This document shows positions 2,431 to 49,206 of a stretch of DNA of 64,000 bases, piece by piece (within the stretch, counting starts at the first letter, position 1; every line of letters starts with the position of its first letter). The notes below the pieces were generated by a model, which was not told the DNA's origin, did no database searches, and saw nothing but the letters and a program-made list of their open reading frames with translations. Origin of the DNA: an uncultured Bacteroidales bacterium (GTDB lineage Bacteria > Bacteroidota > Bacteroidia > Bacteroidales > Paludibacteraceae); the NCBI GenBank assembly GCA_902778935.1, contig CACYZT010000001.1:1-64000 (forward strand), read 5' to 3'. Made by a program: the position numbers and the translations under genes.

Positions 2431-2463
2431 TTTGACCGTCGTTTGACCGTCGTTTGACCGTCG
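2431..2463 (-). repeat. 11-bp tandem array, site 1 (three perfect units)
   Basis: Three perfect contiguous 11-mers, TTTGACCGTCG on the plus strand, equal to CGGTCAAACGA units on the transcribed minus strand. It starts about 20 nt downstream of the -7 box of the promoter at 2486-2516, inside the untranslated leader. Confidence 0.9.
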
Positions 2464-2485
2464 TTCCGATATGGTAAAGCGGGTG

Positions 2486-2516
2486 CAAAGGTACAACAAA
2501 AAAATGAGATATGCAA
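2486..2516 (-). promoter_or_regulatory. Promoter of the small gene / sprT-like operon
   Basis: TTGC at 2516-2513 and TACCTTTG at 2493-2486, canonical 20-nt distance from TTG. The leader to the ATG at 2329 is about 150 nt and holds array site 1. Confidence 0.85.
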
Positions 2517-2643
2517 GGGGAATGGGGATTTTTTTAAGAAAAATAGGCCACTTTATTCCGAAATAGGCATATTTAGGAAGGGGAGCACCGCAGGTAAACC
2601 GCCCTAAGCCGGATGACATCCAGCGGAATGGACACAGAAAAAA

Positions 2644-2667
2644 CGCGCCATCGGAGGTGGCGCGCTT
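2644..2667 (-). terminator. Terminator after the membrane protein gene
   Basis: Minus strand GCGCGCCA and TGGCGCGT flank a short loop and are followed by a T-run, 17 nt after the stop at 2684. Confidence 0.85.
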
Positions 2668-2683
2668 AGGGGAGAGGGAGCCG

Positions 2684-3337
2684 TTACTCAACTGCGGGGG
2701 CTTCGGCAGGGGTGTCGCCGAGGAAAGCGCCGGAGGTGAGTTGCTTATAGATAGATGCCTCGACACCTAAGATAGCCGGAACGGCGAAAATAGTAAGGAT
2801 AAAGATGAGTATCTTACCGATTGTTTCGAGCCAAGATACTTCGCCTATGCCAAAGAGAAATTGGATGATTACGATGACCAGTTGGAGACAGAAGACAAGC
2901 AAGAACTCGGTACCGAAAATACGCCATTTATGTCCGTACGTGAGGCGATTAGACTCATGCAGCGCATCCATGGCAGACATGTCTTTGTCCACAAAAAGTA
3001 CGACAGCGAACGACCAAGCCACGGAAATAACGAATCCCGGAATAATACCAAAAAGGAAACCTACCAAGATAGCCCCCGTCATAAGGGCGGAGAGGATGAA
3101 GTACTCGCCCATGTTACGGCGGTATTTGCCGTCAAAAATGAAGAGCGGGTTGATGACCGTGCCTTTCGCCATCTCCGCAGGGAGCGAGCTGACCGCGATG
3201 GTGGTTCCGACATTGAGGTACGGGATCCAGATAGTCACGAGGTAGAGAACTACCGTTAGAATGAGGCTCAGATAGTTGACCAGAGCGATGGCGAGACCAT
3301 CCTTGATGGTTGCCATAATGGCGAGTTTTTTATCCAT
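2684..3337 (-). CDS. Multi-pass membrane protein of unknown function
   Basis: About 217 aa with roughly five to six hydrophobic segments, including one at the N-terminus (after MDKKLAIMATIKDG) and a pair near the C-terminus. Amphipathic segments between them resemble the DUF975/Gdpd_C-type integral membrane proteins of Bacteroidota, but I cannot assign a family with certainty. No catalytic motif is visible. The ATG at 3337 is preferred because the frame upstream crosses the promoter; MI two codons earlier (3343) is an alternative. It is a single-gene unit with its own promoter and terminator. Confidence 0.75.
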   Translation of the reverse strand: MDKKLAIMATIKDGLAIALVNYLSLILTVVLYLVTIWIPYLNVGTTIAVSSLPAEMAKGTVINPLFIFDGKYRRNMGEYFILSALMTGAILVGFLFGIIPGFVISVAWSFAVVLFVDKDMSAMDALHESNRLTYGHKWRIFGTEFLLVFCLQLVIVIIQFLFGIGEVSWLETIGKILIFILTIFAVPAILGVEASIYKQLTSGAFLGDTPAEAPAVE

Positions 3338-3376
3338 AATCATTTTAGTTTGGTTGGTTAAACACCTTTGCGACTG

Positions 3377-3407
3377 CAAAGATACGAAGATTTTTGGAGA
3401 TATGCAA
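3377..3407 (-). promoter_or_regulatory. Promoter of the membrane protein gene
   Basis: TTGC at 3407-3404 and TATCTTTG at 3384-3377, with the invariant 20-nt distance. Leader about 35 nt. Confidence 0.85.
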
Positions 3408-3481
3408 GAGAAAATGAAAAAAAACACAGAAAATCGCAGAAAAAGAGCAAAAAAGGGAACAGATAGGCGGTCGCGGCTACC

Positions 3482-3615
3482 CTGTACGCCGCTACCCTAT
3501 TGCTTGTAAACAAGCAGCGCGACCGCAAGGGTCGCGCCGTTCTATGCTCGCGCTTTTTCCTCGGACTGGGAAGTCCTCGGGCGCTTCGCTCATGTGCTTT
3601 TGCGGCTACGTCTTA
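3482..3615. repeat. Chain of short palindromes between genes
   Basis: Consecutive small inverted repeats fill the gap before dnaK's 3' end: GCTTGTAAACAAGC, a GCGCGACC/GGTCGCGC hairpin with a GCAAG loop, GGACT/AGTCC, and GGCTA/TAGCC. No reading frame here looks coding. Similar chains occur at 5.6, 25.2, 32.8-33.1 and 40.2 kb. Confidence 0.6.
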
Positions 3616-3630
3616 GCCACAAGGGCACGA

Positions 3631-5553
3631 TTATTTCACTTCTTCGAAGTCGACGTCTTCGGCGTTGTTGCCGTTGTTCGAGCCGTTGTTGTCAGTAGGA
3701 CCGTTGGTCGGGCCTTGTTGCGGGCCGGCTTGGCCTTGCTGAGCTTGCTGTTGGGCAGCGTACATCTCAGCGGAGGCAGCTTGGAAAGCAGTCATGAGTT
3801 CGTTGTTAGCTGCTTCGCAGGCATCTGCGTCACGCTTCTCATACGCCTCTTTGAGTTTCTTGAGCGCTTCCTCAATCGGAGCTTTCTTGTCAGCCGGAAT
3901 CTTATCGCCGAGTTCAGCTAACTGCTTCTCTGTCTGGAAGATAGTAGCGTCCGCCTTATTGAGCTTGTCAGCCTGCTCCTTAGCCTTCTTATCGGCTTCG
4001 GCATTAGCTTCCGCTTCAGCTTTCATTCGCTTGATCTCGTCGTCAGACAGACCGCTGGATGCTTCGATACGAATCTTCTGCTCCTTGCCGGTAGCTTTAT
4101 CCTTAGCGGTGACGTTCAAGATACCGTTTGCGTCGATATCGAAGGTCACTTCGATCTGCGGCTCGCCACGACGTGCCGGCATGATACCATCGAGGTGGAA
4201 GATACCGATTTGCTTGTTCTGAGCCGCCATCGGACGCTCGCCTTGGAGGACTTTGATCTCTACAGAAGGCTGGTTATCAACGGCTGTGGTGAAGGTCTCG
4301 GTCTTCTTGGTCGGGATAGTGGTGTTAGCCTCGATCATCTTGGTCATGACACCACCCATGGTCTCGATACCGAGGCTCAGCGGGGTTACATCGAGAAGGA
4401 GGACATCTTTGACATCGCCCGTGAGGACACCACCCTGGATAGCTGCACCGACTGCTACAACCTCGTCCGGGTTAACGCCCTTCGACGGCGCTTTGCCGAA
4501 GAATTTCTCTACTGCGGCCTGGATAGCCGGGATACGCGTCGAACCACCAACCAGGATGATTTCGTCGATATCGGATGTCTTCAATCCGGCATGCTCGAGC
4601 GCGGTCTTACACGGCGCGATAGTACGCTGGATGAGGTCATCGATGAGTTGCTCGAATTTCGCACGCGTCAGGGTCTTAACAAGGTGCGCAGGAACACCGT
4701 TCACCGGCATAATATACGGCAGGTTGATTTCCGTGGTGGTAGCTGAAGAGAGCTCGATTTTTGCTTTCTCAGCCGCCTCTTTCAGACGCTGCATAGCCAT
4801 CGGGTCTTTGCTCAGGTCGGCACCGCCGTTCTCAGCCTTGAACTCGGCTACAAGCCAATCGATGATACGATGGTCGAAATCATCGCCTCCGAGGTGGGTA
4901 TCACCGTCGGTTGCTTTTACCTCGAAGACACCGTCACCAAGTTCGAGCACAGATACATCGTGGGTACCACCACCGCAGTCGAAGACTACAATCTTCATAT
5001 CCTTGTTGGACTTGTCAAGGCCGTAAGCCAGGGCAGCTGCAGTAGGCTCGTTGACGATACGACGTACGTTCAGACCTGCGATCTCGCCGGCCTCCTTGGT
5101 AGCCTGACGTTGCGAGTCATTGAAGTATGCCGGCACTGTGATGACAGCTTCGGTAACCTCCTGTCCGAGGTAGTCCTCAGCGGTCTTCTTCATCTTCTGA
5201 AGGATGATAGCCGAGATCTCCTGCGGCGTATAGAGACGTCCGTCGATGTCCACACGGGGAGTGTTGTTGTCGCCCTTTGTTACTTTATAAGGAACACGCG
5301 CGATTTCAGACTGCAAGCGGTCGTAGGTCTCGCCCATGAAACGCTTGATAGAATAAATAGTTTTGGTCGGGTTCGTAATGGCTTGACGTTTAGCAGGGTC
5401 GCCTACTTTACGCTCGCCACCATCGATGAATCCAACAACAGAAGGAGTAGTACGCTTACCTTCAGCGTTAGCAATGACGATAGGTTCGTTACCCTCCATT
5501 ACGGCTACACACGAGTTCGTGGTACCGAGGTCAATTCCAATAATTTTAGACAT
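3631..5553 (-). CDS. dnaK: Molecular chaperone DnaK (Hsp70)
   Basis: ATP-dependent chaperone that binds exposed hydrophobic peptides in the cytoplasm, working with DnaJ and GrpE (not in this window). 640 aa, full length. The N-terminal ATPase carries [11 protein letters not shown] (residues 4-14), [14 protein letters not shown] near 190 (usual DLGGGT has Cys here) and [10 protein letters not shown] near 340. The substrate-binding domain ([14 protein letters not shown]) and a helical lid follow, ending in a Q/G/N-rich tail and the acidic DVDFEEVK that matches the usual EEVD-like end. No CIRCE operator or standard -7 box is apparent upstream; the gap holds a GACCG hairpin array. Confidence 0.98.
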
Positions 5554-5588
5554 AGTAGTATATTTTTTAGTTCAACAATTCAATTTAT

Positions 5589-5672
5589 GACCGTCCTGCG
5601 GACTGATAGACCGCTGCGCTGACAGACCGTTTCACTGACAGACCGCTGCGCTGTTAGAACGAGTCACTCTAA
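5589..5672. repeat. GACCG hairpin array (five 16-20-bp units)
   Basis: Five head-to-tail units beginning GACCG/GAACG: one 20-bp unit (GACCGTCCTGCGGACTGATA) and four 16-bp units such as GACCGCTGCGCTGACA. It sits between the dnaK start and the terminator of the era operon. The first two units recur inside era about 400 bp away in the same orientation. Confidence 0.85.
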
Positions 5673-5693
5673 AAATGACAAACTCTATGCCAA

Positions 5694-5730
5694 ACAAAAA
5701 AAAACTGCCAAACATGACAATTTGGCAGAT
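5694..5730 (-). terminator. Terminator of the gdhA-kbl-tdh-M16-era operon
   Basis: Minus strand CTGCCAAA and TTTGGCAG pair around an 8-nt loop and are followed by a long T-run, about 40 nt after the era stop. Confidence 0.9.
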
Positions 5731-5766
5731 TAAGAGGCTTGACACCCGTTTATTCCGTGCGGTGTG

Positions 5767-6741
5767 TCATGTCAGGTCGTAACCGTAGTGCTTGAGTCGT
5801 CCTGTGTTAGAACGCCAATCGCGATCCACCTTGACGAAGAGCTGGAGGAAGACTTTTTTCTGGAAGAAGTCCTCGATTTCCTGCCGAGCCTGCATCCCTA
5901 CCCGCTTGAGGGCAGAACCACCTTTGCCGATGATGATGCCTTTCTGGCTTTCGCGTTCGCAATAGATGATGGCGCTGATATGCAACCTAGTTGCATGACC
6001 GTCCTGCGGACTATAAGACCGCTCCGCTGTTGGAACTTCTTTGAAGGACTCTACTTCGACTTCGACGGAGTACGGGATTTCCTTGTCGTAGTTCTGGAGG
6101 ATTTTCTCGCGGATGATTTCATTGACGAAGAAGCGCTCGGACTTATCGGTCAGTTGGTCTTTGGGGAAGAAAGGCGGTCCAACGGGCAGCGCATTCTTGA
6201 TTGCTTCGAAGAGTTGGTCCACTCCAAAGCGTTCCTGCGCCGAGATAGCGAAGATTTCCGCCTCAGGCAGTTGTGCTTGCCAGAACGCGACGAGCGAGTC
6301 GAGCGTTTCCTGCGTAGTGAGGTCTATCTTATTGATTATAAGGAAGACGCGCGTACCGGCAGCAGACATCTTTTTCACTTTCTCGACGAAGTCGGGATTG
6401 CGGTCAATGGTGTCCTGCGGTTCTGTCACATAGAGCAGCACATCGGCATCGACGAGTGCTGAACGCGAGAATTCCAGCATTTTCTCCTGCAAGCGATAAT
6501 TAGGCGCAAGGACTCCGGGAGTGTCCGAATAGACCATCTGGAAGTCCTCGCCATTAACGATACCGAGGATGCGATGACGGGTGGTTTGCGCCTTCGATGT
6601 GATAATCGAGAGTCGCTCTCCCACCAAGGCATTCATCAGCGTCGATTTGCCTACATTGGGGTTACCAACAATGTTTACGAACCCACTGCGGTGAGTCCGT
6701 AAACACTGGTCATTTGTCTTTTGTAACTGGTTAGTAGCCAT
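5767..6741 (-). CDS. era: GTPase Era, with an in-frame repeat insertion
   Basis: Era binds 16S rRNA through its KH domain and supports 30S subunit assembly. G1 GNPNVGKST, G3 DTPG, G4 NKID and G5 SAQ are all present, followed by a KH domain with GIIIGKGGSALKRVG. The start at 6741 lies one base past the stop of the M16 gene; an in-frame ATG at 6759 would overlap that gene. About 324 aa, longer than usual: between VESFKE and LHISAIIY the normal short loop is replaced by some 17 residues (VPTAERSYSPQDGHATR) encoded by a copy of the GACCG element (5997-6032) plus a small palindrome (5980-5996). All GTPase and KH motifs remain intact. Confidence 0.96.
   Translation of the reverse strand: MATNQLQKTNDQCLRTHRSGFVNIVGNPNVGKSTLMNALVGERLSIITSKAQTTRHRILGIVNGEDFQMVYSDTPGVLAPNYRLQEKMLEFSRSALVDADVLLYVTEPQDTIDRNPDFVEKVKKMSAAGTRVFLIINKIDLTTQETLDSLVAFWQAQLPEAEIFAISAQERFGVDQLFEAIKNALPVGPPFFPKDQLTDKSERFFVNEIIREKILQNYDKEIPYSVEVEVESFKEVPTAERSYSPQDGHATRLHISAIIYCERESQKGIIIGKGGSALKRVGMQARQEIEDFFQKKVFLQLFVKVDRDWRSNTGRLKHYGYDLT
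5980..6032. repeat. GACCG element inserted inside era
   Basis: A 20-bp unit (5997-6016) and a 16-bp unit (6017-6032) match the first two units of the intergenic array at 5589 almost exactly. A 17-bp palindrome (ATGCAAC/GTTGCAT arms, 5980-5996) adjoins them. The insertion keeps the era reading frame and adds about 14 residues near position 240. Confidence 0.85.
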
Positions 6742-6742
6742 A

Positions 6743-9649: not shown

Positions 9650-9678
9650 ACAATAAATATTATATTGGTTTGTATTTT

Positions 9679-9718
9679 CGATAAATCGAGATATCGGTAT
9701 TCCGATAAAACGAAGTTG
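9679..9718. repeat. 8-bp tandem array (CGATAAAT-like, five units)
   Basis: CGATAAAT, CGAGATAT, CGGTATTC, CGATAAAA, CGAAGTTG in register, abutting the tdh stop codon. The unit is related to that of the array before kbl (11944-11983). Confidence 0.75.
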
Positions 9719-10744: not shown

Positions 10745-10745
10745 C

Positions 10746-19449: not shown

Positions 19450-19605
19450 GTTTTTCGGACCAATCCCGACAGTCAACCGACGGTGAACCGACAGTCAACC
19501 GACAGTCAAGGCTAAGATAAGGCTAAGATCACCCTACTTTCATGCTAAGCTTGACCGATTAAAGAATATCGGCGACATCTCTGCCGCCGATACCCTTTCT
19601 TCCTT
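19450..19605 (+). ncRNA. Orphan promoter-array-hairpin transcript A (putative)
   Basis: From the predicted start this ~150-nt stretch contains an 11-bp phased array (19466-19531) and ends in a hairpin, TATCGGCG/CGCCGATA (19567-19592), followed by a pyrimidine/T-rich run. No substantial reading frame is present. It resembles the unit at 33163-33310 in promoter, leader and array, arguing for one family of transcripts. Confidence 0.4.
19466..19531 (+). repeat. 11-bp tandem array, site 2 (six units)
   Basis: Six consecutive 11-mers in perfect phase: CCGACAGTCAA, CCGACGGTGAA, CCGACAGTCAA, CCGACAGTCAA, then GGCTAAGATAA and GGCTAAGATCA. It begins about 20 nt after the -7 box of the promoter at 19415. 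Confidence 0.95.
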
Positions 19606-26939: not shown

Positions 26940-26995
26940 CAGCGTGAATTAATATCCGGAAATGTGGCCGATACGTTTTGCAAAGGTATGCTCGA

Positions 26996-27028
26996 CTCAA
27001 CACCGAGTCAATACCGAGTCAATACCGT
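26996..27028 (+). repeat. 11-bp tandem array, site 3 (three units)
   Basis: CTCAACACCGA, GTCAATACCGA, GTCAATACCGT in phase, within the leader of the surface protein gene and 57 nt after the -7 box. Confidence 0.85.
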
Positions 27029-27078
27029 ATCCCACACCACCCTATATATACTATGTATATATCCCGTGATTTTGAAAA
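27024..27078 (+). repeat. 55-bp dispersed repeat, copy 1
   Basis: 48 of 55 positions match the reverse complement of 49101-49155. It starts at the end of array site 3, contains the AT palindrome TATATATAC/GTATATAT and ends in CCCGTGATTTTGAAAA, 15 nt before the ATG. Confidence 0.9.
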
Positions 27079-27093: not shown

Positions 27094-30000
27094 ATGAGAA
27101 ACATTCTTAAAAAATCGTTATTCTTCACTATTGGTTGCCTTTTGGCAAGTGTAGTATGGGCTGTAGAACCAACTCTATCAATCAACGAAAGCAGTCAAGG
27201 TTCGACAAGTTATCTAAAGGCCTATACCACAGAAGGTATTACGCTTTCATCCTCTGCCAGTTTTAGCAGCGGTGCGGTACAATTAGGCAACACACCGAAT
27301 GCGTATGACCAGCACTATATTGAAGTGCTGGCTGCTAACAATACGATTGATAGTGTTAGTTTCCTCATTTCCGGTAATGGGTCGAATAAATCCATCCAAG
27401 CACCTGTTTTCGGATGGGCGCAGACCGCAACATCAAATACTGCAGACACTTATCGTATTTTGGATGCAGTTACGGTGACAGCTAACTCCTATTCAGCAGC
27501 TAAGTGGTTCACTTACAAATTTAACGGTTCCAACGTAAAATGTGTGCGCATATACCGTTCCACGAAGAATATAAGTTCCGTTAATCCTGCTTATACCGGT
27601 ACCAGCACAGCTCTTGGTTCTGGTCAAACTATTAAGGTTTATGGCCTTAAAATCTGGTTAGCTGGTGGCGGCGGAGGAGGCGGCGATGTCGCTGTAACTG
27701 GCGTATCGCTTAACAAAACCACCACATCCATCCAAGTCGGGGCTTCGGAGCAACTGACGGCTACCGTTGAACCAAATAACGCCACCAACAAAGCCGTTAA
27801 TTGGTCCAGCAACTCTCCTTCCGTTGCTACCGTGGATAATAGCGGAAATGTGACGGCTGTTGCCGAAGGAACGGCTACTATTACCGTTACCACCCAGGAT
27901 GGCAACAAAACCGCTACGTGTACCGTTACTGTCACTCCCGCTTCGAGCGATCCCGTAGCCGTTACTGGCGTGTCGCTCAACAAAACAAGTACCACCCTGA
28001 CAGTAGGCGGTTCGGAGACTTTGACGGCAACCGTTCAACCTTCGAACGCCACCAACAAAGCCGTTAATTGGTCCAGCAACCCTACTTCCGTTGCTACCGT
28101 GGATAGTAACGGAAAAGTGACAGCCGTTGGCGAAGGAACAGCTACGATTACCGTTACCACCCAGGATGGCAACAAAACAGCCACTTGTACCGTAACCGTA
28201 AATGCTGCTCCGCCTACTCCTCCTACGCCTCCCACAACGCTTTCGCTCCACTTGCCGGAAGTATATGAAGCTTCTTCAGCTGCCGGCGGTTACAATACAC
28301 CTCTGGCCGTGTATGGCGGACGCGAATATGAAGTTTATTACATCAACCGAGATGCAAGCGGTAAATTGCTCTCTATTGCTACCAGCAATGTGGATAAAGC
28401 AGGAAATATATGCGATGACAGCCAATCGACCGACAAAACGACCGTTACCAAAGACGGTTGGGCAAAAATCAGCGCAAGTAACGGTACCGGTGGCGACCAG
28501 AATGCAGCAGCACAGGCCGAATACCAGACATCGCTCAGAAGCGTGAAGTTCAATAACAACTCTCACGAATTAGTCATGCATATCCAAGGATATGACGAGT
28601 TCAGTTTCTACGGAAAGGACAATAATACGACAGCAAGCAAGAATAAGATGTTTGAGGTCTATATCGACAATGTCAAACAATACTATACACCTGCCGACTA
28701 CTCTATCCATCGTTTCCCCATCACAACCGGAGAGCATTTGATTCGTATTACAGCCATCGGTGGTAGCGACAGCAAACTGTGCGCTTTCTCGCTCCGCGTT
28801 TCGCAGGAACCGAGAGCAAAATGGCTCGATGGTAACGATTCCACGCAAATCATTTACCAGACGCAAGAGATGGACCCGATTATCTATTATACAAAGTATA
28901 ATAACATCGCCGGCGCAGAGACCGTTCTGGAATGGGTAGGCACACCGGCCAATGGTATCTCGCTCGCCAAGACTCACGGCGATGCCTTAGGCGACACATT
29001 GGCTATCAGCGGTACTGCTAACTGCCAATGCGGTGTGTACCATTACAACGTAGTCAGCAAATACAATGGTAATCCGACCCGAACCATCCCAGGCACACTG
29101 CGTGTGGCTACATCGCTTCGTCCTTCTTCACGCGACTCAGTCTTCGAAGCTTTCAAAGGCGAAGAAATCGATGAGATTGCATTCACTTATACGGCGTTGA
29201 GCGAGGACTCCGTAAAATTGACTTGGAAAACCGCAGCACCCGCAGGCATCACAGGCCACGGCGTTTCGGGCACTAAGAAATACGTCATCAGCGGTACGCC
29301 AAGCGTTACCGGAGACTATGAGTTCACCGTCAGCATAGGCGGTGGTGAGACCGTCTTCAAAGGACTGCTGAAGATAACCGAAGTGGATTTCGGCAACAAT
29401 CCTGTCATGTATCTGTACAAGAACAGTCTGGCGTACGAGAACGACGGCGTGTACCAATATCTCAAGAGTTCCGAAGGCGGTAGCGTGAACCTTATTCCCC
29501 GCAAGGCCAAAGAGAGCGGAGCTCGCGAACCATACAACTACAGCAGTTATAAATGGGTTCTTATCTCCGAAGATGTGGACGCCGACAATGCGGAGATCTT
29601 GGCTATCGTTCGCAACAATGCCTCCAACCTGCCGGTACTGAATATGAAAAGCTTCAGTTACGCAGAAGGTCGTCTGGGTTGGGGAGAACCGAACAACGGT
29701 AGTATCGACAGCACAACGAATAACGGATGTAACATCTATGTCGAGCAACCTACCCACCCGATTTTCAAAGACATAACCGCTACGGGCGGAAAGATACAAG
29801 TGCTCAACAAAGTAAGCAAACGAGGCGTTATGCCGATTGATATCAATAACTGCCCGGGGTCGTTCTGTCTGGCTACCGCTTACACGCGTAATATCGAGGA
29901 TTACTACACCGACGGCGAAAAGCAGACTATTATTCACGAGGTTCCTGTGGGATTAAACGGCAGAACCAAGAACTATATCTGCTTCCCGCTCGCGAACACC

Positions 30001-30534
30001 AAGGATAACCTGACGAGCAATGGAAAGAAACTGCTTCGTAACATCGTTAACTACCTCTTGGGCACAACCCATTTCTCCGGTCTGCCGGAACTGAAGATGA
30101 CAGGTTTTAGCGTGGCGGGTTACACGGCATCGATTAATCAGGAGGAGAACCTGATTGAACTCAACCTGACGCTTGACCAGTTTGATGCAGCAGATAGTCT
30201 GCGTGCCGTTAAACCGGTTATCACCTTGGCGGACGGAAAGACACATGTCATTCCTGGAGCAGACGAAGAGCTCGACCTGCGCTACACCACTTTCCTGCCG
30301 AAGACGTTCGTCGTAACCGATTATATCAACCGCCGTGCGTACTCCTTCTTCGTGAATATCACTCGCCCGGAAGGCATTGACGAGGTATATGAAGTCGGAC
30401 AATGGGTGAACGTATTTGATATCTACGGACGTAAGATTGCGACCACCAACGAGGATATCTATTCCATGGACCTGCCACGAGGCATGTATATCATCGTGAC
30501 TGAGAAGGGACAAAGCATCAAACTGATGAAATAA
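27094..30534 (+). CDS. Secreted surface protein with two Big_2 domains and T9SS sorting tail
   Basis: 1146 aa. Signal peptide ([23 protein letters not shown]), an N-terminal beta-rich domain, a glycine linker (GGGGGG), two bacterial Ig-like Big_2 domains (residues ~200-285 and ~290-370) with the pattern GVSLNKT...[12 protein letters not shown], further beta-rich domains, and a C-terminal type IX sorting-like end: [10 protein letters not shown], then LPRGMYII and IKLMK. Predicted to be exported by T9SS to the cell surface. The two Big_2 segments are near duplicates at DNA level. Its stop shares one base with the queF start. Function is unknown. Confidence 0.88.
27695..28200 (+). repeat. Tandem duplication encoding the two Big_2 domains
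   Basis: About 240-bp segments at 27695-27935 and 27964-28200 are highly similar, with long identical blocks around the AVNWSS and [12 protein letters not shown] codons. Confidence 0.85.
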
Positions 30535-32016: not shown

Positions 32017-32672
32017 TGTATCGCGTCAACGAAATATTCTTTACCTTGCAGGGTGAAGGTGCGCACAGCGGAATTCCCGCTGTGTTTGTTCGTTTTAGCG
32101 GATGTAACCTGCGCTGCCCGTGGTGTGATACGGATTTCCATGAGTTCCAAGAGATGTCCGCCGAGCAAATCGTAAGCACAATGTTAGAGCTGTACGACAC
32201 ACCTAATGAGCGACGGAAGATGTGTGTGCTCACAGGCGGAGAACCAAGCCTGCAGGTGGACCAACCGCTCATTGACGCTCTGCACAAAGCCGGTTTCTAT
32301 ATCTGCATCGAGACCAACGGCACCCATGCCCTTCCGGAAGGAATAGACTGGATTACCTGCTCCCCGAAAGAGAGCTCAATCACAAATCACAAATCACAAA
32401 TCACAAATCCTCATCCACTTGCTTTGAAGAAAGTGAATGAGGTAAAAGTCGTCTTCACCGGCACGTACGACCCGGAGATTTGGCGCACCCAATTGGAAGC
32501 TGAGCACTGGATGCTGCAACCCTTGCGATATACAGGTGAATGGCTGATAGAGAATGTCGATTCATGGGAAGACGACCGCAACGACAATCTCGATGACACC
32601 GTCCGTTACATCCTCGCCCACCCCTTCTGGCGCCTCTCCGTCCAGCTCCACAAAATAGCAGGCCTCCGCTAA
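32016..32672 (+). CDS. queE: 7-carboxy-7-deazaguanine synthase (radical SAM)
   Basis: Radical-SAM ring contraction of 6-carboxytetrahydropterin. GTG at 32016 gives the family N-terminus VYRVNEIFFTLQGEGAHSG; the longer frame from 31956 only overlaps queD. The [4Fe-4S] motif is GCNLRCPWCDTDF (CX3CX2C). About 218 aa. Residues ~122-132 (ITNHKSQITN) come from a 7-bp repeat, ATCACAA, a lengthening of the loop after TCSPKES. Confidence 0.96.
   Translation: MYRVNEIFFTLQGEGAHSGIPAVFVRFSGCNLRCPWCDTDFHEFQEMSAEQIVSTMLELYDTPNERRKMCVLTGGEPSLQVDQPLIDALHKAGFYICIETNGTHALPEGIDWITCSPKESSITNHKSQITNPHPLALKKVNEVKVVFTGTYDPEIWRTQLEAEHWMLQPLRYTGEWLIENVDSWEDDRNDNLDDTVRYILAHPFWRLSVQLHKIAGLR
32379..32406. repeat. 7-bp tandem array inside queE
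   Basis: Four perfect copies of ATCACAA followed by ATCCTCA. The encoded peptide resembles the one from the barrel-gene array at 15732 (SNSKSQISN versus TNHKSQITN). Confidence 0.9.
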
Positions 32673-33162: not shown

Positions 33163-33310
33163 ATTTTCGGTCGAATCCCGACAGTCGACCGACAGTCAAC
33201 CGACAGTCGTACACGAGGTCACTATGACGTTTTCTTCTTTGTTTTACAGGCGAATATTATTCGCCGCTCCATAAAAAAACAAGCGGGCACTCCCTGAGTA
33301 CCCGCCTGCT
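33163..33310 (+). ncRNA. Orphan promoter-array-hairpin transcript B (putative)
   Basis: From the predicted start to a terminator-like hairpin (GCGGGCACTC with GAGTACCCGC, then CTTCTTT) this is ~145 nt. It contains an 11-bp array (33178-33210) and a GGCGAAT/ATTCGCC hairpin near 33250. The longest frame from an ATG is 16 codons (MTFSSLFYRRILFAAP). Same design as 19450-19605. Confidence 0.45.
33178..33210 (+). repeat. 11-bp tandem array, site 4 (three units)
   Basis: CCGACAGTCGA, CCGACAGTCAA, CCGACAGTCGT in phase. The preceding 11-mer TCGGTCGAATC aligns with TCGGACCAATC before site 2. Confidence 0.95.
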
Positions 33311-40282: not shown

Positions 40283-40402
40283 TCAACGGAGCTCGGCTCC
40301 GATGATATTATAGGTCTTGCCGTTCTTCTCGATGAACAGTTGGCCGTCGCGGAGCACTTTAACGGCTTTGTCGCCGGCATTGACTGCATCAATCGCACAA
40401 AA
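40283..40402 (-). pseudogene. 3' remnant of an exported surface-protein gene
   Basis: Minus-strand frame ending at TGA 40285-40283 reads KAVKVLRDGQLFIEKNGKTY, then NIIGAELR. This matches the C-terminal tail seen in the LRR protein here (RNGNVYILTDDNTYTIDGRL). No start or upstream domain is present; the frame has no initiator before it runs into promoter-like and AT-rich sequence. A decayed or truncated gene is the simplest reading. Confidence 0.55.
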
Positions 40403-40444
40403 ATTCACTTTTTCGGTTTGGCACGATTTTTGCATGTATATATT

Positions 40445-40561
40445 ATGAAATTTCTTTGGTCTGCCATTTTGGCAGTTTGGGCCATTTATCTCAGTCTGAG
40501 ATTGGCTAAATATCCCGAAAATAACAAGAGAATAACCCGTGAATCACCCGTGTTTTGGTAG
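40445..40561 (+). CDS. Possible 38-aa membrane peptide
   Basis: Short frame from ATG 40445 with a hydrophobic segment (MKFLWSAILAVWAIYLSL) followed by a polar, basic tail (AKYPENNKRITRESPVFW). A GATTTTTG box (40425-40432) lies just upstream but has no proper -33 partner. The 3' third coincides with 11-bp array site 5. It might be a real small membrane peptide or a chance frame. Confidence 0.25.
   Translation: MKFLWSAILAVWAIYLSLRLAKYPENNKRITRESPVFW
40508..40551 (+). repeat. 11-bp tandem array, site 5 (four units)
   Basis: AAATATCCCGA, AAATAACAAGA, GAATAACCCGT, GAATCACCCGT in phase. GAATCACCCGT fits the shared consensus with sites 2-4. Confidence 0.8.
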
Positions 40562-40835: not shown

Positions 40836-40867
40836 TAGCCGATTTTAAATTAGCGTATTGTGGCCCT

Positions 40868-41800: not shown

Positions 41801-41810
41801 GCGCTGCGCG

Positions 41811-41857: not shown

Positions 41858-41888
41858 TGGTTTTTATTGCATAAAAACGTTTTTTGAT

Positions 41889-42803: not shown

Positions 42804-42805
42804 TT

Positions 42806-43738
42806 ATGACAAAGAAAGACCTGAGGATAGTGTATTTGGGGACACCGGAGTTTGCTGCAGCGAGTCTGCAGGCCCTGGTGGAAGGCGGTTATAACGTCGT
42901 GGCGGTGGTTACGATGCCTGACAAGCCGGCAGGACGCGGACATCAGTTACAGTATTCGGACGTGAAGAAATATGCGCTGTCTGCAGGCCTGCCCGTGCTC
43001 CAACCGGAGAAGTTGAAAGATGAGGCTTTTCTGGAAGAGTTACGCAGTTATAAGGCGGATTTGCAGATAGTGGTAGCATTTAGGATGCTGCCGGAGGTCG
43101 TTTGGTCGATGCCTCGTTTGGGCACTTTTAACCTGCATGCCTCGTTACTACCTCAATACCGCGGTGCGGCACCGATTAACTGGGCTGTGATGAATGGCGA
43201 CACCGAGACAGGCGCCACCACGTTTATGCTCAAGCACGAGATAGACACGGGTAACATGATTTTGCAAGAACGGCTACCTATCGGCGCGGACGAAAACGTG
43301 GGTTCGGTACACGACCGTCTTATGGCGCTCGGCACAAGTCTGGTAACGCGCACGGTGGACCTGATTATCGACTGCGAGAACCGCGGCATCGCGTTGCCTA
43401 CCACGCCGCAACCGGAGATAAGCGACCTCCGTCCGGCACCGAAGATTTTCAAGGAGAGCTGTGAGATACAATTTACCGAGAAGACGGCTGCAGAGGTTAA
43501 GAATTTCGTTCGCGGTCTTAGTCCCTACCCTGCGGCCTGGGCCAACCTGACGATTAACGGACAAGTGTTTGAGAATGTGAAGATTTACTCTGTGGAGACA
43601 ATGGACAATGGACAATGGACAATGGACAAATCTTCCATTGTAGTGCCGTGCAAGGAAGGGGCGGTGCGCATACTGGAACTACAGGCACCGGGCAAGAAAC
43701 GGATGGACGCACGGGCATTCATGAATGGGATACATTGA
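42806..43738 (+). CDS. fmt: Methionyl-tRNA formyltransferase
   Basis: Formylates initiator Met-tRNA. 310 aa. The N-terminal formyltransferase domain has GTPEFAAASLQAL and the catalytic stretch FNLHASLLPQYRGAAPINWA; the C-terminal tRNA-binding OB-like domain follows. Residues ~264-275 (MDNGQWTMDK) are encoded by four perfect copies of GACAATG, which lengthen a loop of the C-terminal domain. ATG two bases after lgt. Confidence 0.96.
   Translation: MTKKDLRIVYLGTPEFAAASLQALVEGGYNVVAVVTMPDKPAGRGHQLQYSDVKKYALSAGLPVLQPEKLKDEAFLEELRSYKADLQIVVAFRMLPEVVWSMPRLGTFNLHASLLPQYRGAAPINWAVMNGDTETGATTFMLKHEIDTGNMILQERLPIGADENVGSVHDRLMALGTSLVTRTVDLIIDCENRGIALPTTPQPEISDLRPAPKIFKESCEIQFTEKTAAEVKNFVRGLSPYPAAWANLTINGQVFENVKIYSVETMDNGQWTMDKSSIVVPCKEGAVRILELQAPGKKRMDARAFMNGIH
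43597..43631. repeat. 7-bp tandem array (GACAATG x4) inside fmt
   Basis: Four perfect GACAATG copies and one GACAAAT. The 7-bp unit rotates through the frame, giving METMDNGQWTMD-type peptide. Confidence 0.9.
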
Positions 43739-43739
43739 G

Positions 43740-44291: not shown

Positions 44292-44300
44292 CCATTTACC

Positions 44301-45467
44301 TTAGTGGAACTTATGGGCGAAGCCGATAGAGAGTAGTTCGCGGAACTGCAGTTTGGCGTGCGTATCGCCCTCCATAACCACCGAGCTGTCATAGCGCGGA
44401 TGTAACATCAGCCGTGCCGAGAGCCAGCGGTTGACAATAAAATCCAAGTTCACCTCGAGGTCCAGCTCGACGTGGTGGTAGTTCGTATAGGCAAAGAATT
44501 TCGTTTCAAGTGCAAACTCTCGCACGGGTTTCCATACATACTCCAGACGCATGGATGAACCGACATTGTGCTGGATTTGCTGTCCTTCGTTCAGTCCGTA
44601 TTCGGTGGCTTTGACTCGCGCCGTATCGCCTACGTACACCATTTTGTACGAGATAGGCGAGATGGAGATAGATAATCGCGGCACGGGTTTGAAGTCCACA
44701 CCGAACGCCCCGTTGAAGCGGAGCGGCGAGAAAGGCGCGGACTTGAGTTCATTCGAATTGGACTTGTAGGTCGGCAGTAATCGCGTCTCGAACTCCACAG
44801 AGATAGAGGCGAAGAATTTCGGCACGATGCGCAGGTTGGCTTTCGAATAGATACGAAACAAGTCATCGGTGGTGTTTACCTTATGCAGGCTGTCGGCGGA
44901 GACGGTAGAGCCGCCCATACGCCACTCGCCGAAGTTCTCCCACGTGAAACGCTCTTGGATGTAACTGATTTGTCCTTTCGCGATGCCGAGTCCGGCGAAA
45001 GACGACGAACCGCCCTGGTACCAGTTGGACGTGACGTAGTTCTGCGTGATCTGCGCCATGAGCGTCAGTTCGCGCCGCCACGGCGAGCGCATATTCCGTA
45101 TGGCCGTCAGCACGTCGTTGCGGTCCTCGACCTCATCCTTAACCCATGATTTCTCGATGACGAGTTGCGGTGTGCGGTTCATGGACTCTACCTGCAGCGA
45201 TGCGTTGTAGTTACGCAGCGAGTCAACTTCCTCCATCTCTCGTTGGATGGAGTCGAGTCTCATCAGTTCCGCCAGCGTGAGCGTATCGACCGTATCGTTC
45301 TCATGCAGCATTTCGCTCTGCCGCGCGACCATATCGAGCAACAACGCATCCATGTCGGCAGTGCGTTTCTGCTCCGCCAACTTGAAAGTATCGGTATATA
45401 ATTGCTGTGCCGTCAAGTTCATGGCGGCACAGACAATGGTTACTATGAGGATTTTAGCCTTCAGCAT
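44301..45467 (-). CDS. DUF3078 outer-membrane protein (second copy)
   Basis: About 388 aa. Signal peptide MLKAKILIVTIVCAAMNLTA, a charged helical region (~residues 25-95), then a beta-barrel-like domain with WYQGGSSSFAGLGI near 160 and barrel-end LLSIGFAHKFH. Shares the DUF3078 pattern with 25511-26722 but has an extra coiled N-terminal segment. Start 45467 follows the secA stop by five bases, so it is likely co-transcribed with secA. Confidence 0.8.
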   Translation of the reverse strand: MLKAKILIVTIVCAAMNLTAQQLYTDTFKLAEQKRTADMDALLLDMVARQSEMLHENDTVDTLTLAELMRLDSIQREMEEVDSLRNYNASLQVESMNRTPQLVIEKSWVKDEVEDRNDVLTAIRNMRSPWRRELTLMAQITQNYVTSNWYQGGSSSFAGLGIAKGQISYIQERFTWENFGEWRMGGSTVSADSLHKVNTTDDLFRIYSKANLRIVPKFFASISVEFETRLLPTYKSNSNELKSAPFSPLRFNGAFGVDFKPVPRLSISISPISYKMVYVGDTARVKATEYGLNEGQQIQHNVGSSMRLEYVWKPVREFALETKFFAYTNYHHVELDLEVNLDFIVNRWLSARLMLHPRYDSSVVMEGDTHAKLQFRELLSIGFAHKFH

Positions 45468-45472
45468 TCTTG

Positions 45473-48400
45473 TTATACACCAGCGGCACCGATTTTGCCG
45501 TGGCACTGTTTGTACTTCTTACCTGAGCCGCAGGGACAGGGATCGTTCGGACGGGGTTTCTTGTCCGCGATAATCGGTCCCTGGTGAACCTGTTCGCGGG
45601 TGTCTCGTCCGGCAGCCTGTGCCGCTCCGGAAGCCTGTGCAGCCTGCTGTACGGCGTCTTTCTGCGAACGATAACTGCTGTAGTCGGTACGGCGTTGCTG
45701 CTGTGCCTGCTGCACTTTGTCGGGTTCCTGGACGTGTATCTGTCCGCGGAGCAGGATAGCGAGGGCTCGGCGGTTGAGCGTATCCAACATCGCTTCGAAG
45801 ATATGCGCCGACTCGAGTTTGTAAATCAAGAGCGGGTCTTTCTGCTCGTACGAAGCGTTCTGAACCGACTGCTTGAGGTCGTCCAATTGGCGGAGGTGCT
45901 CTTTCCACTCATCATCGATGACGTAGAGCAACATTCGTTTCTCGAACTCCTTCACCACCTCTTTGCAATGCGTCTCAGCCGCAGCCTTGAGGTTGACGGC
46001 GATGTTATACACTTTCTTGCCGTCGGTAATCGGGATGAGGATATTCTCGTACATCTGTCCCTTGGTCTGGAAGACGTACTGGATTTGCGGGTCGGCAATC
46101 TGTGTCAGCTTGTCCATACGGCGTTTGAAACTCTCGAGGGCAGCCTCTGCGAGTTGGTCGCTCAGTTCATTGCGTTTGCCGCGGTTGAACTGTTCCTCAT
46201 CAAAGGGCAATTCGATAGCGAAGGTCTGCATGACGTCGTACTTGAGTCCTTCGTAGTCATTGGCTGTACGGGCTTCATTTAAGATGCCTTCCGCCGTCTC
46301 ATAAATCATATTCGTAATATCCACGCCTATACGCTCTCCCATGAGTGCGTGACGACGCTTGGCATAGATGAGGTTACGTTGCTGGTTCATCACATCGTCG
46401 TACTCGATGAGGCGTTTACGGATACCGAAGTTGTTCTCCTCGACCTTCTTCTGCGCCCGTTCGATAGAGTTGGATATCATCGAGTGCTCGATCATCTCTC
46501 CTTCCTGGAATCCCATTCGGTCCATGACCGAGGCGATACGCTCAGAGCCGAACATACGCATGAGGTCATCCTCGAGCGACACATAGAAGACGGAGCTACC
46601 CGGATCACCCTGACGACCGGAACGTCCGCGGAGCTGTCTGTCCACGCGTCGGCTCTCATGACGCTCGGTACCGATGATAGCCAGACCGCCGGCTTCCTTC
46701 ACTTCGGGAGTCAGCTTGATATCCGTACCACGACCGGCCATATTGGTTGCGATGGTCACGACGCCGGAACGTCCGGCTTCGGCAACGACCTGTGCCTCCT
46801 GTTGGTGCAACTTGGCGTTGAGCACGTTGTGCTTGATCTTGCGGAGCGTGAGCATTCGGCTCAAGAGCTCGGAAATCTCTACACTCGTTGTACCGACGAG
46901 GACCGGTCTGCCCTGCTCTACCATGGAGACGATCTCATCGATGACGGCGTTGTATTTCTCGCGCTTGGTGCGATAGATACGGTCGTTCATATCGTTTCGC
47001 GCGATCGGTTTGTTGGTCGGAATAACGACTACGTCGAGTTTGTATATATTCCAGAACTCACCCGCTTCGGTCTCGGCGGTACCGGTCATACCGGAGAGCT
47101 TGTGGTACATACGGAAATAGTTCTGCAGGGTGATGGTCGCAAAGGTCTGGGTAGCGCCTTCGACTTTCACATTCTCTTTGGCTTCAACCGCCTGGTGCAA
47201 GCCGTCCGACCAGCGGCGGCCCTCCATAATACGGCCGGTTTGCTCATCGACAATCTTCACTTCTCCGCCGTCAATGATATAATCGACATCTTTCTCGAAG
47301 AGAGTGTATGCCTTGAGCAGCTGGTGAACGGTGTGTACGCGCTCGGATTTGATGCTGTAGTTGGTCAGGATATCGTCCTTTTTCGCCTGTTTCTCATCGG
47401 CAGAAAGGCCTTCCGTGTGCTCGAGTTCCGCCATCTCCGAACCCACATCCGGAAGGACGAAGAAATTCGGGTCATCGGTGGTGCCGGTAAGGGCATCAAT
47501 ACCCTTGTCGGTCAACTCGATGGACTTGTTCTTCTCGTCAATGACGAAATAGAGTTCGTCCGTGGCGATATGCATATTCTTCTCATTCTCCTGGAGATAG
47601 AACTCCTCCGTCTTTTGCAGACGCACCTTGACGCCGGGTTCGGAGAGGTATTTGATGAGCGCCTTGGATTTCGGCATACCCTTGAAGGAGCGGAATAGCG
47701 CCAGTTCGCCGGCTTCTTTCTCTTTCTCGTCAGCGGAACCCATTTTGGCTTTAGCCTCAGCGAGCAGTTTGGTGGTAAGGGTAGTCTGCTGACGCACGAG
47801 TGCCGCGACGCGGTCCTTGTATTCATCGAACATCTGGTCCTCGCCGCGCGGCACCGGACCGGAGATGATAAGCGGCGTACGGGCATCATCGATGAGCACG
47901 GAGTCCACCTCATCGACGATGGCGAAGTTATGTCCGCGCTGAACGAGGTCGAGCGGGCTAATCGCCATGTTATCACGCAGATAATCGAAGCCGAACTCGT
48001 TGTTCGTACCGAAAGTGATGTCACAGGCATAAGCCTTGCGGCGGTCGTCAGAGTTGGGTTTGTGCTTGTCGATACAATCGACACTCAAGCCATGGAACAT
48101 ATAGAGCGGTCCCATCCATTCGGAGTCACGGCGTGCGAGGTAATCGTTCACGGTCACGACATGCACACCCTCGTGGGTGAGGGCATTGAGGAAGACGGGC
48201 AAGGTAGCGACGAGCGTCTTACCTTCACCGGTAGCCATCTCGGCGATGGAGCCGCGTTGCTCCTTGTCGTTTTTGACTGCTCCATGGAGCACGACGCCGC
48301 CGAAGAGCTGCACGTCATAGTGAACCATATCCCATGTGATTTCGTTACCACCCGCCATCCAGTGGTTGTGGTAGAGGGCTTTGTCACCGTTAATCTCGAC

Positions 48401-48838
48401 AAAGTCAAAACGCGGGTCGGCAGCCAGGTTCTTATCAAACTCGGTGGCGGTCACTTCGATGGTCTCGTTCTCCGCGAAACGGCGAGCGGTCGATTTGACG
48501 ATAGCGAACGCTTCGGGCAGGATATCGGTTAGCGTGATTTCGTACTGCTCACGGATTTCCTTCTCGAGTTTGTCCACTTCGTTGTAGATTTTCTCGCGTT
48601 TCTCGATAGGTGTTCCTTCGATGGACGCTTTGAGTTCGGCGATGCGGTTCTTTCTGTCCGCCACGTCGGCCTGGATGCGGTCCATGAGCGCCTGAGAGTG
48701 CGCACGGAGTTCATCATTCGACAGCGCATCGATAGTCTCATAGGCTGCCTTGGTCTTGTCCACGTACGGCTGAATAGCGCGCATATCTTTCTGCGCCTTG
48801 TTGCCGAATAATTTCGTTATAATCTCTAAAAAGTTCAT
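45473..48838 (-). CDS. secA: Preprotein translocase ATPase SecA
   Basis: Drives Sec export. 1121 aa, the long Bacteroidota form. Walker [15 protein letters not shown] (residue ~200), DEVDSVLID (~315), PPXD cross-linking region, helical scaffold with GTDIKL (AGRGTDIKL), and the C-terminal zinc tail [15 protein letters not shown]. The long insert before the tail is rich in Q and A. Divergent from lptD; its start is preceded by a CGATTTA repeat. Confidence 0.98.
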
Positions 48839-48852
48839 ATCTATAATTTACG

Positions 48853-48881
48853 ATTTGACGATTTACGATGTGCGATTTTCT
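48853..48881. repeat. 7-8-bp array (CGATTTA) in the secA leader
   Basis: CGATTTGA, CGATTTA, CGATGTG, CGATTTT in register between the secA promoter and ATG. Confidence 0.8.
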
Positions 48882-48902
48882 ATACCGCACATAAAAAGCG
48901 TG

Positions 48903-48933
48903 CAAAATTACAACTTTTTTTTGATATATGCAA
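48903..48933 (-). promoter_or_regulatory. secA promoter
   Basis: TTGC at 48933-48930 and TAATTTTG at 48910-48903, canonical spacing. The leader of ~60 nt contains the CGATTTA array. Confidence 0.85.
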
Positions 48934-48965
48934 GTTTTTTTCTTTAGAAAAATTCAAACAAAAAG

Positions 48966-48988
48966 TATATAATACATAGTATTATATA
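48966..48988. repeat. AT-rich palindrome beside array site 6
   Basis: TATATAATAC and GTATTATATA around a 3-nt loop. Confidence 0.8.
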
Positions 48989-49022
48989 GTAAATGTGGCA
49001 TTTTGTGCAATTTTGTGGTTCT

Positions 49023-49077
49023 ATTATAGTAAAGTGTCGTAAACGAGTCGTAAATGGAAGGTAAATGAGTACTGCGA
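49023..49077 (+). repeat. 11-bp tandem array, site 6 (five units)
   Basis: ATTATAGTAAA, GTGTCGTAAAC, GAGTCGTAAAT, GGAAGGTAAAT, GAGTACTGCGA in phase, in the secA-lptD intergenic region. Confidence 0.8.
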
Positions 49078-49100
49078 GGATAGAAGACGATTATCGGTAG

Positions 49101-49155
49101 ATTTCAAAATCACGGGATATATACTATGTATATATAGGGTAAGGTGGGATACGGT
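49101..49155 (-). repeat. 55-bp dispersed repeat, copy 2 (inverted)
   Basis: Reverse complement of this segment matches 27024-27078 at 48 of 55 positions. Like copy 1, it joins an 11-bp array (site 7) to an AT palindrome. Confidence 0.9.
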
Positions 49156-49206
49156 TTTACCCTTACTTGCCTCAACGATTAGTCAACGATTAGTCTTGCT
49201 TTGACT
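49152..49206 (+). repeat. 11-bp tandem array, site 7
   Basis: CGGTTTTACCC, TTACTTGCCTC, AACGATTAGTC, AACGATTAGTC, TTGCTTTGACT in phase; the two middle units are identical. Confidence 0.8.

What the first reader, a model, noticed from the sequence alone, without database searches (positions are those of the whole stretch)
2431..49206. Seven intergenic arrays with an exact 11-bp period and a shared consensus
At 2431-2463, 19466-19531, 26996-27028, 33178-33210, 40508-40551, 49023-49077 and 49152-49206 short units repeat with an exact 11-bp period and no spacers. Units differ between loci but align to a common pattern near CAGTCAACCGA when read in one direction (CGGTCAAACGA at site 1 minus, CCGACAGTCAA at sites 2 and 4, GTCAATACCGA at site 3, AACGATTAGTC at site 7, GAATCACCCGT at site 5). 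At sites 1-4 the array begins about 20-60 nt after a -7 box, in the transcribed leader and in the direction of transcription. Eleven bp is close to one turn of B-DNA and exactly one turn of A-form RNA, so a protein filament on DNA or a repetitive RNA-binding site are both possible. I know no described Bacteroidota element of this kind. Function is inference; periodicity and position are seen.
Basis: partly seen in the sequence, partly recalled or inferred. Interest (0 to 1): 0.82.

Follow-up and report, generated by a model that had tools for sequence, protein, structure and literature searches.

The report
Roaming 11-base tandem repeats in gut bacteria
A genus of uncultured gut bacteria carries short back-to-back repeats, most often 7 or 11 bases long, that recur at many places in the genome, change copy number and sequence quickly, and even sit inside essential genes such as an isoleucyl-tRNA synthetase, probably as tolerated passengers rather than as control switches.

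Summary
The arrays are real, but not a promoter-linked code. Four of seven window arrays were never matched in 20 shuffles, two are moderate, and 49023-49077 is near chance. They belong to dispersed families: CCGACRGTCRA (2431, 19466, 33178), the 11-mer head of an AT-palindrome element (26996, 49152), and a third element (40508). In 840 kb of the genome, tandem arrays peak at 7, 8 and 11 bp, with none at 10 or 13; 21 other genus members show the 7 and 11 peaks with other units. Arrays lie in frame inside conserved genes: of 25 parsed isoleucyl-tRNA synthetase loops, nine have 11-bp, four 7-bp, three 9-bp, one 8-bp periodicity, eight none. Between close relatives, arrays change by exactly 11 bp and one is replaced outright. 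A -7 box precedes 9 of 87 sites (control 5). Best reading: fast-evolving dispersed mini-satellites, depleted from coding sequence, tolerated in linkers and spacers; how they are copied is unknown. Most genus members have lost the Pol I 3'-5' exonuclease domain; a link is unproven.

The parts
2431..2465 (-). Family A array, CGACGGTCAAA x3.2 read on the minus strand, in the leader of a small minus-strand gene (within 1985-2488) whose product begins MSEIKTSSGIEQIHGK
   Evidence: score 22, none in 20 shuffles; leader copies aligned
19466..19531 (+). Family A array: four CCGACRGTSAA units, then two GGCTAAGATMA units (3' shoulder in the same 11-bp register)
   Evidence: 82 bp at 85% with the 33178 site
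26993..27077 (+). Dispersed element B: 11-mer head with TACCGAGTCAA units (26993-27028), then ATCCCACACCACCC and the AT palindrome ATATATAC-TAT-GTATATAT, just 5' of a Big_2-domain gene (27094-30534)
33178..33210 (+). Family A array, CCGACAGTCRA x3, in a promoter-leader; relative RUG281 has four units at the same site, with about 55 bp upstream nearly identical and 24 bp downstream identical before the sequences diverge
40397..40551 (.). Dispersed element C with degenerate 11-mers GAATAACCCGT/GAATCACCCGT at its end (40508-40551); 154 bp at 87.7% with C2:193896-194045
49102..49206 (-). Second copy of element B: palindrome within 49110-49139, 11-mer head 49152-49206 (GACTAATCGTT x2, GAGGCAAGTAA, GGGTAAAACCG on the minus strand)
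49023..49077 (.).
32378..32409 (+). 7-bp array AATCACA x4.6 (same genome-wide phenomenon, other period)
43597..43629 (+). 7-bp array GACAATG x4.7; an array of the same 7-mer fills the IleRS loop of relative G025

Best explanation
The arrays are fast-evolving, dispersed mini-satellites: short repeats of roughly 50-100 bp with an internal 11-bp register; sister families have 7, 8, 15 and 16 bp. Shown: many unrelated sites of one genome carry near-identical blocks; copy number changes by whole 11-bp units; the repeat at a site can be replaced by an unrelated one; arrays are depleted from coding sequence yet occur in frame in linkers and loops. Inferred: units multiply by replication slippage with preferred steps of about 7-8 and 11 nt and are copied to new sites by an unidentified process (template switching or ectopic gene conversion being the simplest). 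They persist where extra sequence is harmless (spacers, leaders, interdomain linkers, surface loops), so most are neutral or selfish passengers rather than regulatory sites.
For: Period spectrum in 840 kb of the own genome at threshold 16: 36 arrays at 7 bp, 16 at 8, 27 at 11, and 0 at 10, 12, 13 and 17; one shuffle of the same sequence gave 0 at every period. In 796 kb of 21 other genus members: 33 at 7 bp, 28 at 11, and 1-5 each at 8, 9, 10, 12 and 13. Dispersal: 45 near-identical unit pairs among 33 own 11-bp arrays against a null mean of 1.34, maximum 7 in 100; the same 33-mer at 8 of 12 unrelated sites in G008 and 5 of 16 in G034, with conserved shoulders fading over 20-30 bp. Site turnover: IleRS loop; junction of a flavoprotein fusion with 11-mers in six relatives and a 16-bp array in the window's genome; M16-peptidase loop with CCGAC units in five relatives and another 11-mer in the own genome. 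Exact +/-11 bp changes at three of seven sites and full replacement in one ortholog, with 10 of 12 orthologous flanks 91-100% alike. Depletion: 11 of 63 11-bp arrays lie in ORF interiors, which make up 82% of the own sequence; all 11 have consensus units stop-free in all frames on at least one strand, against 35 of 52 elsewhere, Fisher P 0.027.
Against: No donor-to-target copying event was caught, and no clean empty site at high identity was found, so the dispersal step is inferred. Some sites (IleRS loop, ABC-F-type protein, flavoprotein junction) carry arrays in many species, which could also reflect selection for a linker or a function; most loci were chosen because they carry an array, so site conservation is overestimated, and the 30 IleRS loci are those closest to an array-bearing query. 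The stop-free test is weak: in 4 of the 11 in-ORF arrays the open strand of the consensus unit is not the strand of the ORF. Two of 21 sampled genus members (G007, G028) had no array of any period in their 40-kb samples. Near divergent genes, 6 of 7 family-A arrays are antisense to the nearer gene, which is unexplained. Gene calls are crude. The genomes examined are drafts in many contigs.
Confidence: 0.6

Rival explanations
1. Regulatory or architectural sites: a protein (for example a ribbon-helix-helix or ParR-like filament former) or an RNA-binding protein recognises the repeated 11-mers in promoters and leaders.
For: Several window arrays lie in leaders downstream of a -7-like box; leaders of a small gene family keep promoter, array, AT-rich palindrome and start in that order in several species; arrays are often more alike than their flanks.
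Against: 43 of 90 sites lie in predicted ORFs; no clear strand bias in tandem spacers (15 to 10); no clear -7 box enrichment (9 versus 5 of 87); unit sequence differs between species at the same site; no unusual RNA folding in six arrays.
Confidence: 0.15
2. A non-autonomous mobile element (MITE- or REP-like) carried as a block by a transposase.
For: Block-like identical copies at unrelated sites; element B has an AT palindrome with 8-bp arms and six strict-pattern copies in 840 kb, two of them at contig ends that may be one locus.
Against: Ends are fuzzy rather than sharp. No Y1 transposase match in the own genome or in array-rich G003 and G025. I saw no terminal inverted repeats or target-site duplications in the alignments, except an inverted repeat around the replacing array of L406, but no clean filled/empty pair was available. 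Different units at one site are not expected of one transposed block. Other transposase families were not searched.
Confidence: 0.12
3. Selection for hydrophilic linkers: proteins favour disordered loop inserts, and out-of-frame 7- or 11-bp repeats are a quick way to make them.
For: Arrays lie between two Pfam domains in IleRS, the flavoprotein fusion, the EPSP-synthase/glycosyltransferase ORF, the APH/RapZ-C protein and a pyruvate oxidoreductase; a unit length that is not a multiple of three gives the same cyclic peptide in all frames when stop-free.
Against: 11-bp arrays are under-represented in ORF interiors (11 of 63); 8 of 25 parsed IleRS loops have no significant array.
Confidence: 0.08

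Closest known systems
Long simple sequence repeats of 5-11 nt (Mrazek et al. 2007, seen only as described in PMC4679880 section 3) and cyanobacterial short tandemly repeated repetitive (STRR) heptamers (recalled; heptanucleotide repeats of the Nostoc trnL intron P6b loop seen in passages of PMC3488679)
   Same: Head-to-tail short units above chance; many loci; two motif classes fill the same P6b loop; copy number varies; 7-nt units prominent
   Different: Here an 11-bp period rivals 7 bp, units are exchanged wholesale at a site, and arrays lie in frame inside conserved protein genes
TAACTGA heptamer direct repeats of Beggiatoaceae, cyanobacteria and five Bacteroidetes, including Paludibacter propionicigenes (MacGregor 2015, PMC4679880; abstract and sections 3, 12 and 15 read)
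   Same: Spacerless tandem units in spacers and some ORFs; dispersed; host range includes Bacteroidetes
   Different: That work concerns one fixed 7-mer, in its main genome mostly just upstream of starts; here many unit sequences with 11-bp period and no such positional rule
Tandem repeats of archaeal Borg elements (PMC9879509; abstract, section list and search passages seen)
   Same: Fast-evolving, independently arising repeats in spacers and ORFs that often make disordered segments; one section is headed a conserved hotspot
   Different: Borg repeats within ORFs all have unit lengths divisible by three; here 14 of 17 periodic IleRS loops have 7-, 8- or 11-bp units, and units recur at many sites of one chromosome
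Rickettsia palindromic elements (passages in review PMC10969869)
   Same: Short dispersed elements inserted in frame in unrelated genes
   Different: Those are palindromic and about 150 bp; the CCGAC arrays are direct repeats with no strong fold
Small dispersed repeats of cyanobacteria (Elhai et al. 2008; recalled, only papers citing it appeared)
   Same: Very small repeats at many unrelated sites, mechanism unknown (recalled)
   Different: Recalled as having sharper ends; here the ends fade

Membership tests
Long simple sequence repeats / STRR | Tandem units of 5-11 nt in excess of shuffled sequence | tested here: met
   shuffles; other genomes, no shuffle
Cyanobacterial STRR in the narrow sense | 7-bp unit | tested here: not met
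   The arrays of the finding have 11-bp units; separate 7-bp arrays do exist
Rickettsia palindromic elements | In-frame insertion in unrelated genes | tested here: met
Rickettsia palindromic elements | Palindromic element folding as a long hairpin | tested here: not met
   Six arrays with flanks, z from -1.6 to +0.76
MITE | Terminal inverted repeats and target-site duplication | tested here: inconclusive
   Fuzzy ends, none seen by eye for family A, but no clean filled/empty pair at high identity
REP/RAYT | Y1 transposase in the genome | tested here: not met
   PF01797 has no match at E <= 0.001 in G000, a 90%-complete genome
Borg-type in-ORF tandem repeats | In-ORF unit length divisible by three | tested here: not met
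   14 of 17 periodic IleRS loops have 7-, 8- or 11-bp units
Iteron or centromere arrays (ParR, omega type; recalled) | One cluster at an origin or centromere bound by a cognate protein | tested here: not met
   Dispersed over contigs and inside genes; binding itself not testable here

The most novel reading that the evidence does not exclude
This genus runs a DNA-writing process with a fixed step of about 11 (and 7-8) nucleotides. A replication or repair activity, possibly tied to a DNA polymerase I that has lost its 3'-5' exonuclease domain, writes, copies to new places and overwrites tandem 11-mers at permissive sites, so that the register is inherited genus-wide while the sequence written is replaced from species to species. 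Because 11 is not a multiple of three, stop-free units read as the same cyclic peptide in all frames and can extend essential proteins without regard to frame.
Probability: 0.12. Interest if true: 0.85.

Novelty: new variant of a known kind. Interest (0 to 1): 0.63.

Why it matters
Short repeats are usually explained by slippage of whatever sequence happens to be present. Here the step size is shared across a genus, the sequence is not, and the same loop of an essential tRNA synthetase has been filled with different 7-, 8-, 9- and 11-bp repeats in different species. That makes two old questions testable: what sets the step length of tandem repeat birth in bacteria, and how very small repeats spread without an obvious transposase. 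It also shows a frame-independent route by which conserved proteins gain linker segments.

Tried and rejected
RNA genes or riboswitches: one Rfam match in the window at gathering thresholds, the 16S rRNA fragment at 1-66; no tRNA. Structured RNA: no unusual folding in six arrays with flanks. Promoter-coupled signal: no clear enrichment. RAYT mobilisation: no Y1 transposase match in the own genome. Mismatch-repair or 5'-nuclease loss: MutS matches in 30 of 31 genomes and the 5'-3' exonuclease domain in 31 of 31, own genome included in both. Pol I 3'-5' exonuclease loss as cause: of 37 genus genomes, 35 give a near-complete Pol I frame; 28 of these are 771-856 aa with no PF01612 match in that frame, and 7 are 880-907 aa, five with a weak partial match and two (G007, G022) with none. 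Of 24 genomes of other families, 22 have frames of 915-978 aa; 19 of the 24 have a strong PF01612 match in Pol I, three a weak one (G044, G046, G051), and G037 and G050 none seen, the G050 frame being a fragment. Array density over all periods was 164 per Mb in 12 exonuclease-deleted genomes (127 without the own genome) against 81 per Mb in the 7 longer ones, Mann-Whitney P 0.35, no correction for relatedness, so inconclusive; G037, which lacks the match, has no arrays in 61 kb. Phage origin: one exact pattern match in viral contigs, not followed. Other families as controls: 0 period-11 arrays in 278 kb from six genomes; one of them, G060, has 7- and 10-bp arrays. Literature: no paper held both Paludibacteraceae and tandem repeat, or both 11-bp tandem repeats and Bacteroidetes.
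Full report
What was claimed and what is there. Reading the sequence confirms spacerless 11-bp units, and Tandem Repeats Finder reports period 11 at 2431, 19466, 19508, 26993, 33178, 40530 and 49172, and at a few further places such as 295 and 23114. Against 20 second-order Markov shuffles of the window, the four arrays at 2431, 19466, 26996 and 33178 were never matched. The stretch at 49152-49206 is moderate. The one at 40508 is weak under strict scoring but strong under lax scoring. The one at 49023-49077 is near chance.

The window arrays belong to dispersed families. Family A, CCGACRGTCRA, holds 2431 (minus strand), 19466 and 33178, plus further copies in the same genome; the pattern search found 22 overlapping hits against 2 for the reversed control. 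The sites at 26996 and 49152 are the 11-mer heads of one dispersed element (B): degenerate 11-mers, then an ATCCCAC stretch, then an AT palindrome with 8-bp arms. A strict pattern for B finds six copies in 840 kb, two of them near-identical sequences at the ends of contigs C9 and C10 that may be one locus. Three of the six have a scored 11-bp array within 250 bp where 0.12 is expected; by eye all six have degenerate 11-mers there. A looser BLAST adds three similar places. The site at 40508 is the end of a third element (C), with 154 bp at 87.7% to another contig. So the consensus is shared by three sites, not seven.

Period 11 is one of a few discrete periods. I scanned 839,619 bases of the 2,183,757-base genome. 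At a run score of 16 or more there are 36 arrays at 7 bp, 16 at 8, 5 at 9, 27 at 11, 18 at 14, 13 at 15, 16 at 16, and none at 10, 12, 13 or 17; periods 18-40 give 0-17 each, 22 (twice 11) the most. One Markov shuffle gave none at any period; rows at 14, 16 and 22 partly repeat 7, 8 and 11. With overlaps collapsed, 796,441 bases of 21 other genus members give 33 arrays at 7 bp and 28 at 11, while 8, 9, 10, 12 and 13 give 5, 1, 2, 2 and 1. Twelve of the 21 have a period-11 array in their sample, and G007 and G028 have none of any period. Six genomes of other families (277,918 bases) give none at 11, and one of them has 7- and 10-bp arrays. Most 11-bp units of these species differ from those of the window; G008 has CCGAC-type ones.

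Units are dispersed within a genome. Among 33 own 11-bp arrays there are 45 pairs of units within two mismatches in any rotation or strand; shuffling letters within units gives a mean of 1.34, maximum 7 in 100 trials. In relative G008 the identical 33-mer stands at 8 of 12 unrelated sites, in G034 at 5 of 16. The conserved shoulders fade over about 20-30 bp and differ from genome to genome. Period-11 excess persists about 60 bp upstream and 20-30 bp downstream of the core (90 site clusters from 151 arrays). Of 61 genomes searched, own included, 35 have a match with up to two mismatches. The high counts are all in the same genus; no other-family genome has more than two hits, about the level of the controls.

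Arrays lie inside genes. Alignments show arrays at the same place in orthologous genes, and Pfam places them (with array positions): between the catalytic and anticodon-binding domains of isoleucyl-tRNA synthetase; between an NAD/Fe-S domain and a Fer4/pyridine-nucleotide oxidoreductase part of a flavoprotein fusion; between EPSP-synthase and glycosyltransferase domains of one open frame; in the tail of a CNNM/CBS protein; between APH and RapZ C-terminal domains; between the POR and POR_N domains of an oxidoreductase in G008; in an ABC-F-type protein; and inside the C-terminal domain of an M16 peptidase. A PDB comparison confirms the IleRS and places a gap of 14 residues at the insert.

Sites turn over. 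For IleRS I searched 61 genus genomes, read the 30 best loci, and parsed 25 loops: nine have 11-bp periodicity, four 7-bp (one of them weak), three 9-bp, one 8-bp and eight none, at P < 0.01 against letter shuffles; five were unparsed. Of the nine 11-bp loops three have CCGACGG-type units (G034, G021, G008); the other six differ, for example CGAGTCGAAAA, GGAAGCTCATC and CCGAGAGATGA. In one species the 8-mer GAGATCAC resembles a GAGATCGAC-like codon string for the conserved Glu-Ile-Asp next to it, which suggests local birth (my reading). At the flavoprotein junction six relatives have CCGAC 11-mers and the window's genome has a 16-bp array. At the M16 site five relatives have CCGAC 11-mers and the window's genome has GAGAACGATAC/GAGAATGACAC-type 11-mers, periodic by eye.

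Recent change. Seven array sites of G062 were compared with 12 orthologous loci of G063, G064 and G065; ten of the 12 probes are 91-100% alike, two are 87% and 80%. Three sites (L244, L247, L251) differ from a relative by exactly one 11-bp unit. One site (L256) has a longer array in the relative. At two (L246, L257) the array differs only by substitutions. At the L251 site G064 carries AAGACTTAAGT-type 11-mers in place of CCGACGGTCAA, with a 98% matching flank. Three loci lack an array (L413, L415, L418), but their downstream sequence is not homologous or the flank is only 80% alike, so none is a clean empty site. Window site 33178 has three units where RUG281 has four; about 55 bp upstream are nearly identical and 24 bp downstream identical before the sequences diverge.

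Context statistics. With crude longest-ORF calls, 43 of 90 site clusters of family A fall in ORFs (30 sense, 13 antisense), 25 in tandem spacers (15 sense, 10 antisense), 10 convergent, 7 divergent (6 antisense and 1 sense to the nearer gene) and 5 at edges; random positions fall in ORFs in 1527 of 1800 cases. Fourteen of the 43 lie in the first tenth of the ORF, where the start is uncertain. Of the 20 that lie further inside ORFs of 300 aa or more, 18 are sense, as expected since the antisense unit contains TGA (counted from the rows). A TAnnTTTG box lies 5-75 nt upstream in 9 of 87 cases, against 5 of 87 for a control interval. Of 63 11-bp arrays of any unit in own and 21 other genus members, 11 lie in ORF interiors although interiors cover 82% of the own sample. 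All 11 have consensus units stop-free in all frames on at least one strand (35 of 52 elsewhere, Fisher P 0.027), but in 4 of the 11 that strand is not the ORF's.

Mechanism. I take as shown: dispersal with sequence identity, whole-unit copy change, replacement at a site, and depletion from coding sequence. I infer slippage with a preferred step plus an unidentified copying step. MacGregor (PMC4679880, sections 3, 12 and 15 read) reports that Mrazek and colleagues proposed a 7-nt polymerase contact to explain the abundance of heptamers; an 11-nt step would be a second such length. Most of the genus lacks the Pol I 3'-5' exonuclease domain (28 of 35 near-complete frames are short and without a match; own sequence read), a notable coincidence. 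But the density test between short and longer forms was not significant (P 0.35), 11-bp arrays also occur in the longer forms, and G037 of another family has no match to the domain and no arrays in 61 kb.

Relation to known kinds. This works like the heptamer repeats of cyanobacteria and Beggiatoaceae and like the fast-evolving repeats of Borgs, and resembles Rickettsia palindromic elements in invading genes in frame. It fails a defining feature of each narrow family: 7-bp unit, unit length divisible by three, palindromic fold. It does meet the broad definition of long simple sequence repeats. I therefore call it a new variant of a known kind. A 2025 survey of short tandem repeats covers units of one to nine bp and reports high repeat density in Bacteroidota (PMC12699852, passages seen); it would not have counted 11-bp units.

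Noticed in passing
window 27040-27069 and 49110-49139; also C2:361524, C2:285715, C9:59204, C10:102 of the same genome: A dispersed element with an AT palindrome (ATATATAC-NNN-GTATATAT, variable central triplet) between a GTATCCCAC stretch and CCCGTGA, followed by TTTTGAA in five of six copies; each copy is preceded, by eye, by degenerate 11-mers.
   Followed up: partly
G000:C11:7627-9969 (polA, L385) and genus members: DNA polymerase I has lost most of its 3'-5' exonuclease domain in most sampled members of the genus, while 19 of 24 genomes of other Bacteroidales families show a strong match to that domain.
   Followed up: partly
window 1985-2488 (minus) and L190, L101, L128, L157: A small gene family (product begins like MSEIKTSSGIEQIHGK or MSKVITSSGIDQIHGK) whose leaders often share promoter, array and an AT-rich palindrome; function unknown.
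   Followed up: no
G000 contigs C5, C9 and C2 (16-bp arrays): A 16-bp family (TCTGTCAGCGCAGCGG) in places beside small inverted repeats such as GTCCGAAGGAC and GGCCGCAGGCC.
   Followed up: no
C1:17154, C2:3086, C2:3498 of the own genome: 8-bp arrays of GGGGTTAG / CCTCTAAT type that look like eukaryotic telomere repeats.
   Followed up: no
L406 (G064:C24 near 54.8 kb): The replacing AAGACTTAAGT-type 11-mer array is flanked by a short inverted repeat, GTTCCACG...CGTGGAAC.
   Followed up: no
L372 (IMGVR_UViG_3300031673_006907): The only viral contig with an exact match to the two-unit family A pattern; not examined.
   Followed up: no
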